Shown here one piece after another: positions 5,309 to 5,783 of a DNA stretch of 41,352 bases. This DNA is from Chloroflexota bacterium (GTDB taxonomy: Bacteria > Chloroflexota > Anaerolineae > UBA4142), in the NCBI GenBank assembly GCA_016223105.1, contig JACRPR010000053.1, forward strand, positions 1 through 41,352, written 5' to 3'. The translations under genes were made by a program, and so were the position numbers. The notes beneath the pieces are model-generated. The model was not told the DNA's origin, did no database searches, and saw only the letters and a list, made by a program, of their open reading frames with translations. Every line of letters begins with the position of its first letter. Positions within the stretch are counted from its first letter, which is position 1.

Positions 5309-5783
5309 TGTGATTCTTTGCCAACTTCCATTACCTTCGACCGGGCTTGCTCAATTTAAATTGCGCCCGGCAATTGTGATTTCGAAAGATGCAAACAATC
5401 AACGATTGGATGATGTGATTGTCGCGCCTTGCACCTCCAACATTTCGCGCAGTCGCGAGCAGACACAATTTTTGATTCAAGGCGCGGAGATTGCGACTGC
5501 TGGTATTCGCGTCGCCTCCGTTGTGCGCTGGTAAGCGTTCAGCCCCATCCGTCATTGCGAGCGGTTTTTGCGAAGCAATCCCCGACTTGGTCGATCCGGA
5601 CTTGCAACGCGGAGATTGCTTCGTCGCAAAAACCGCTCCTCGCAATGACACCTGAACGGTTACGTGCGCTGTGAAGCATTGATGACAATTCCCAAAAGTT
5701 TGATCGTTCGGACACTGGGACATCTTTCTGTAGATGCAATGTCAGCGCTTTGCAATTGCTTGTTGGATGCTCTCGCGCTATAA
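5289..5783 (+). pseudogene. mazF: MazF/PemK-family toxin interrupted by a 133-bp MITE (current truncated ORF 5289..5534)
   Basis: MPIQRGDVILCQLPLPSTGLAQFKLRPAIVISKDANNQRLDDVIVAPCTSNI...ASVVR; removing 5531..5671 (element plus one TSD) gives VVRCEALMTIPKSLIVRTLGHLSVDAMSALCNCLLDALAL*. Confidence 0.9.
5531..5663. mobile_element. 133-bp MITE, IS66-like ends
   Basis: TIR GTAAGCGTTCAG ... CTGAACGGTTAC (11/12), 8-bp TSD GTGCGCTG at 5523-5530 and 5664-5671; interior is a palindrome of the GTCATTGCGAG family. Confidence 0.88.

What the first reader, a model, noticed from the sequence alone, without database searches (positions are those of the whole stretch)
5523..5671. IS66-like MITE inserted in mazF; in-silico excision restores the complete toxin gene
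A 133-bp element (5531-5663) has terminal repeats GTAAGCGTTCAG/CTGAACGGTTAC and an 8-bp direct duplication GTGCGCTG on both sides. Its first bases create a TAA stop, so MazF ends ...ASVVRW*. Deleting element plus one TSD gives GTT GTG CGC TGT GAA..., continuing as VVRCEALMTIPKSLIVRTLGHLSVDAMSALCNCLLDALAL*, a normal-length MazF of 117 aa. GTAA termini and 8-bp TSD are hallmarks of the IS66 family. The interior carries the GTCATTGCGAG palindrome found elsewhere without these ends, so the MITE may be a vehicle for that repeat. The likely result is a disarmed toxin beside an intact antitoxin ORF.
Basis: partly seen in the sequence, partly recalled or inferred. Interest (0 to 1): 0.85.

Follow-up and report, generated by a model that had tools for sequence, protein, structure and literature searches.

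The report
IS66-type MITE interrupting a MazF gene
A 133-letter parasitic DNA hairpin, one of at least 32 copies in this bacterium that use the ends of a jumping gene of the IS66 family, has landed inside a MazF toxin gene and cut off its last third; the element is a known kind, but its core is a second repeat that also occurs alone, and IS66-type ends around other cores turn up in many phyla.

Summary
Window 5531-5663 is a 133-bp non-coding element with 12-bp ends (GTAAGCGTTCAG / GTAACCGTTCAG read inwards, 11/12) and an exact 8-bp target duplication, GTGCGCTG. It lies between profile positions 73 and 74 of PemK/MazF. Most of 92 homologues are uninterrupted, typically 117 aa (up to 89% identity). 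Here MazF stops at residue 81. The genome holds 32 distinct copies with these ends; 27 have exact 8-bp duplications and ten are letter-for-letter identical, so amplification was recent. The IS66 assignment is now tested: relatives carry IS66 transposase elements of 1.4-1.6 kb with the same GTAA ends and 7/8 or 8/8 duplications. No IS66 transposase was found in this (93% complete, 250-contig) genome. The core is a head-to-head pair of GTCATTGCGAG REP-like units (440 hits against 2 for the reversed word); most sampled copies of that palindrome have no IS66 ends. The same shell surrounds 36 unrelated cores in many phyla, 25 with an exact duplication; five families have GTCAT-type units at both ends. 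Verdict: a recent IS66-driven MITE insertion, most likely inactivating mazF. Transposition and loss of toxicity are inferred, not shown.

The parts
5087..5308 (+). 73-aa ORF directly upstream of mazF and overlapping its start; putative antitoxin, intact
   Evidence: 23 homologues besides itself, most of 73 aa, 63-75% identity; no Pfam family above cut-off, only sub-threshold DUF2281
5289..5534 (+). 5' part of mazF, now an 81-aa truncated MazF ending VVRW*
   Evidence: PemK_toxin PF02452, 2.3e-12, profile positions 1-73; translation
5523..5530 (+). left copy of the 8-bp target site duplication GTGCGCTG
5531..5663 (+). 133-bp IS66-type MITE, one of ten identical copies in the genome
   Evidence: RNA fold -66.6 kcal/mol, z = -7.8
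5531..5542 (+). left terminal repeat GTAAGCGTTCAG; its GTAA supplies the TAA stop at 5532-5534
5551..5580 (+). left REP-like unit GTCATTGCGAGCGGTTTTTGCGAAGCAATC of the core
5614..5649 (-). right REP-like unit GTCATTGCGAGGAGCGGTTTTTGCGACGAAGCAATC, opposite orientation (head-to-head pair)
5652..5663 (-). right terminal repeat, GTAACCGTTCAG read inwards
5664..5671 (+). right copy of the target site duplication GTGCGCTG
5664..5783 (+). severed 3' part of mazF (matches profile positions 74-106); its first 8 bases are the right duplication
   Evidence: sub-threshold PemK_toxin match E = 0.032; aligns to residues 80-117 of 117-aa relatives

Best explanation
The feature is a non-autonomous IS66-family MITE that transposed into mazF. 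Shown: it has the GTAA-type ends and exact 8-bp target duplication of IS66 elements, it is one of ten identical copies, it splits a MazF gene that is continuous in relatives, and full IS66 elements with the same ends exist in relatives. Inferred: an IS66 transposase acting in trans (now lost, or absent from the draft assembly) recognised the 12-bp ends, moved the 133-bp hairpin and duplicated 8 bp on insertion. The GTAA end then supplies an in-frame stop after residue 81, removing two strands and the C-terminal helix, so the toxin is most likely inactive beside an intact putative antitoxin. The core between the ends is a head-to-head pair of a REP-like repeat that also exists without the shell, so the MITE is a composite of IS66 ends and a resident palindromic repeat.
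For: Exact 8-bp duplication here and in 27 of 32 copies; ten identical copies. PemK profile is split exactly at 73/74 by the element; 92 homologues, mostly 117 aa and continuous; continuous DNA in relative locus L130. IS66 elements with matching ends: L104, 1597 bp, GTAAGCGTTCAG/GTAACCGTTCAG, 489-aa transposase with DDE_Tnp_IS66 and zf-IS66 domains, duplication 7/8; L112, 1445 bp, 8/8; L106, from the same family of bacteria, 1432 bp, GTAACTGCTCAC ends, 8/8; L107, 1632 bp, 8/8; reversed-sequence control 0. IS66 termini GTAAGCG and 8-bp duplications are stated in PMC11946415. AlphaFold model of the intact relative P0002 (pLDDT 82) places strands 85-88 and 92-98 and helix 101-114 after the break.
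Against: No IS66 transposase was found in the genome itself by Pfam profile (control genomes rang) or by the L104 protein (an empty answer without a positive control). The closest matched autonomous element (L104) is in another family of the class. No empty-site allele from the same species is available; the intact genes are 70% identical at DNA level (L130) or known only as proteins. Loss of MazF activity is inferred.
Confidence: 0.93

Rival explanations
1. The element is a REP/BIME-type palindromic repeat moved by a RAYT-like Y1 transposase, and the GTAA ends are incidental flanks.
For: The core is a head-to-head pair of GTC-tagged REP-like units, resembling the CGTC repeats of PMC3733652, and occurs without GTAA ends. 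One Y1_Tnp gene exists in the genome.
Against: The exact 8-bp duplications abut the GTAA ends, not the REP units. The Y1_Tnp locus L252 has no GTCATTGCGAG within 1.5 kb.
Confidence: 0.03
2. The insertion is real but mazF is not inactivated: the 81-aa product, or a product made by readthrough or re-initiation, still acts, or the element modulates the operon.
For: Catalytic residues recalled from B. subtilis MazF (R25, T48; from memory) would lie before the break by the alignment. The inserted hairpin is very stable and could change mRNA decay or termination.
Against: Two strands and the C-terminal helix are lost, in a part conserved across homologues (R80, E82, G97, L99, C110, L111, L115 and L117 nearly invariant).
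Confidence: 0.1
3. Chance inverted repeat or assembly artefact.
For: The window comes from a 250-contig assembly, and some contigs end inside copies of the element (C11, C53).
Against: 32 copies at distinct sites with exact duplications; the gene is continuous in relatives exactly at the insertion point.
Confidence: 0.01

Closest known systems
IS66 insertion sequences, single-ORF kind (ISBst12-like subgroup, name from memory)
   Same: GTAA-type ends, 8-bp target duplication; relatives L104, L106, L107 and L112 have the same or nearly the same ends
   Different: 133 bp, no transposase; ends matched over 12 bp only
Bacterial MITEs (for example MITEPsy1, Nezha, Chunjie)
   Same: short, non-coding, inverted ends, multi-copy, target duplications, gene inactivation by insertion
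   Different: IS66-type rather than IS5/Tn3-type ends; the interior is a separate, independently dispersed REP pair
CGTC/TGTC-tagged REP repeats (PMC3733652), including RPE-4 and RPE-6 of Rickettsia and dRS3 of Neisseria
   Same: core units begin C/T-GTC then AT..., are arranged head-to-head, and are dispersed in high copy
   Different: longer, interrupted stem; here nested in IS66 ends. That paper reports no transposase gene association for CGTC repeats
MazF/PemK type II toxins
   Same: PF02452 match of both pieces; 117-aa homologues
   Different: this copy is cut after residue 80/81

Membership tests
IS66-family-derived MITE | termini beginning GTAA (GTAAGCG type) | tested here: met
   both ends; 70 pattern hits in the genome against 3 control
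IS66-family-derived MITE | 8-bp target site duplication | tested here: met
   exact here; 27 of 32 copies exact
IS66-family-derived MITE | autonomous IS66 element with matching ends exists | tested here: met
   L104 and L112 in relatives of the class; L106 (same family of bacteria) matches the second end type
IS66-family-derived MITE | matching transposase in the same genome | tested here: inconclusive
   none found, but the genome is a 93% complete draft in 250 contigs
IS66-family-derived MITE | actual transposition by IS66 transposase | not testable with these tools
   needs an assay
MITE (general) | short, non-coding, inverted ends, many near-identical copies at unrelated sites | tested here: met
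   133 bp; ten identical copies; 32 shells
CGTC-type REP superfamily (core) | CGTC or TGTC tag, AT at stem start, head-to-head dimers | tested here: met
   CGTC left, TGTC right, stem ATTGC/GCAAT, head-to-head
CGTC-type REP superfamily (core) | 8-9 bp stem with 4-5 base loop | tested here: inconclusive
   folds with a 5-bp outer stem, interior mismatches and an inner stem
MazF/PemK toxin (interrupted gene) | PF02452 match | tested here: met
   upstream piece 47.5 bits against cut-off 23.1; downstream piece sub-threshold but collinear

The most novel reading that the evidence does not exclude
IS66-type ends are a general vehicle for palindromic repeats: transposases of this family repeatedly acquire resident CGTC-type REP pairs as cores, and this is one route by which such REPs, for which PMC3733652 reports no associated transposase, are spread within genomes and across phyla.
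Probability: 0.15. Interest if true: 0.7.

Novelty: new variant of a known kind. Interest (0 to 1): 0.42.

Why it matters
It gives a clear case of a recently active IS66-type MITE family in what is probably an Anaerolineae lineage, with the donor IS type identified in relatives. I found no description of IS66-derived MITEs in the held papers. The same 12-bp shell around 36 different cores in many phyla, five families with GTCAT-type REP pairs, makes it testable whether IS66 transposases disperse REP repeats. The mazF insertion itself is an ordinary gene inactivation.

Tried and rejected
1) IS66 transposase in the genome itself by Pfam PF03050 and by the L104 protein: nothing. 2) A RAYT (Y1_Tnp) as mover of the palindrome: one gene, no palindrome within 1.5 kb. 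3) Shell-less palindromes as decayed MITEs: flank scores are bimodal; sides without clear ends score like control DNA (at least 9/12 in 25 of 81 sides, of which 3 belong to shells already counted, against 2 of 243 control), so most are not decayed shells. 4) Core words outside shells in other genomes from fetched loci: hits in a few genomes only, too little sequence to decide; a pattern search showed GTCAT-type repeats abundant in seven such genomes. 5) RNA families in the window: none at gathering threshold. 6) Literature on the GTCATTGCGAG word: only unrelated papers.

Full report
CHECK OF THE OBSERVATION. The element is 5531-5663, 133 bp. Its ends read inwards are GTAAGCGTTCAG and GTAACCGTTCAG (11/12), and GTGCGCTG is duplicated exactly on both sides. 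The first bases of the element give TAA at 5532-5534, so the MazF reading frame that starts at 5289 stops after 81 residues.

THE INTERRUPTED GENE. The upstream piece matches PemK_toxin PF02452 at profile positions 1-73 (2.3e-12), and the downstream piece matches positions 74-106, below the cut-off on its own. The break is thus collinear and exact. A search of 5.8 billion proteins with the upstream piece gave 92 homologues, most of 117 aa, up to 89% identical, some named as Anaerolineae or Chloroflexi proteins. The two pieces align to residues 1-80 and 80-117 of those proteins. Locus L130, from a relative of the same class, has the gene continuous in DNA. The 73-aa ORF upstream is conserved and is a plausible antitoxin by position; it has no Pfam family above cut-off. 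An AlphaFold model of the intact relative P0002 shows two strands and the C-terminal helix after the break, so loss of function is likely but is inference. The genome's two other MazF-like hits are distant.

THE FAMILY IN THIS GENOME. The element has many near-identical relatives in the 5.5-Mb genome. After removing duplicates there are 32 shells with these ends (allowing one mismatch per end); 27 have an exact 8-bp duplication and two more match 7 of 8. Ten 133-bp copies are identical, which points to recent amplification. Flanks are AT-rich (typically 0.35-0.53 GC against 0.56), and few sites lie in long open frames, so an insertion inside a recognisable gene looks unusual. A second end type, GTAACTRCTCAG, surrounds the same core, again mostly with 8-bp duplications.

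THE DRIVER. IS66 elements are described with GTAAGCG ends and 8-bp duplications (PMC11946415). In relatives, IS66 transposases (PF03050) lie between such ends: L104 (1597 bp, both 12-bp ends identical to those of the MITE, 489-aa transposase, duplication 7/8), L112 (1445 bp, 8/8), L107 (1632 bp, 8/8), and L106 in a genome of the same family of bacteria (1432 bp, GTAACTGCTCAC ends, close to the second MITE type, 8/8). The reversed-sequence control gave none. No IS66 transposase was detected in the genome itself. The genome is a draft, so this is not decisive.

THE CORE. Between the ends lie two GTC-tagged REP-like units head to head. GTCATTGCGAG occurs 440 times in the genome against 2 for the reversed word. 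Of 40 further loci sampled, roughly a third show a full or partial GTAA shell and the rest none; flank scoring shows two populations, not a continuum of decay. The units fit the CGTC/TGTC REP superfamily in tag, first stem bases and head-to-head pairing, but not clearly in stem length (PMC3733652). That paper reports no transposase gene association for CGTC repeats and notes some REP dimers inside larger palindromes.

BEYOND THIS GENOME. Of 109 elements 52 have an exact 8-bp duplication and 12 more have 7/8. The cores fall into 36 unrelated families, 25 with at least one exact duplication. GTCAT shares first place with the overlapping TGTCA as the 5-letter word most often found at both inner edges (5 of 36 families). 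Genomes with such cores are rich in GTCATTSYGAG repeats. The sharing of 12-bp ends is partly a product of the search pattern; the variety of cores is not.

INTERPRETATION. The best account is a recent, IS66-driven MITE insertion that truncates MazF. Shown: the anatomy, the duplications, the copy family, the continuous gene in relatives and the IS66 elements with matching ends. Inferred: trans-mobilisation, loss of toxin activity and the role of the antitoxin. As a kind, the element is a known one (IS-derived MITE). What is less usual is the composite of IS66 ends and REP pair, recurring with different REP pairs in other phyla.

Noticed in passing
own genome, e.g. L253:384, L259:384, L271:384, L063:1927, L281:384: A second MITE end type, GTAACTRCTCAG, around the same GTCATTGCGAG core with 8-bp duplications; a near-matching autonomous IS66 is in L106.
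   Followed up: partly
L054:4001-4124 (contig C158:49037-49160): Ends GTAACCGTTCAG/GTAATCGTTCAG around a different palindrome, GTCATGCTGAGC, without a clear duplication; that word occurs 10 times in the genome against 0 control.
   Followed up: partly
L053:4001-4160 (end of contig C78): A left MITE end runs into sequence that looks like the coding end of an IS110-type transposase: possibly an insertion into the MITE.
   Followed up: no
window 19299-19372 and 35468-35553: Palindromes of the same GTCATTGCGAG repeat without GTAA ends.
   Followed up: yes
window about 6210-6295 and about 10240-10350: Another dispersed inverted repeat (GTGGGGTAGCATAGCCCCTTGTGGGCG...), not related to the MITE.
   Followed up: no
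L144-L251 (genome-contig scan): The GTAASCGTTCAG shell holds at least 36 unrelated cores across many phyla; a good part of the 109 elements lack a good duplication and may be old, rearranged or of another kind.
   Followed up: partly
L289:~400 (contig C44): A GTCATTGCGAG unit with a TTGGAAGTTGGATGTTGG-type repeat inside it, another nested repeat.
   Followed up: no
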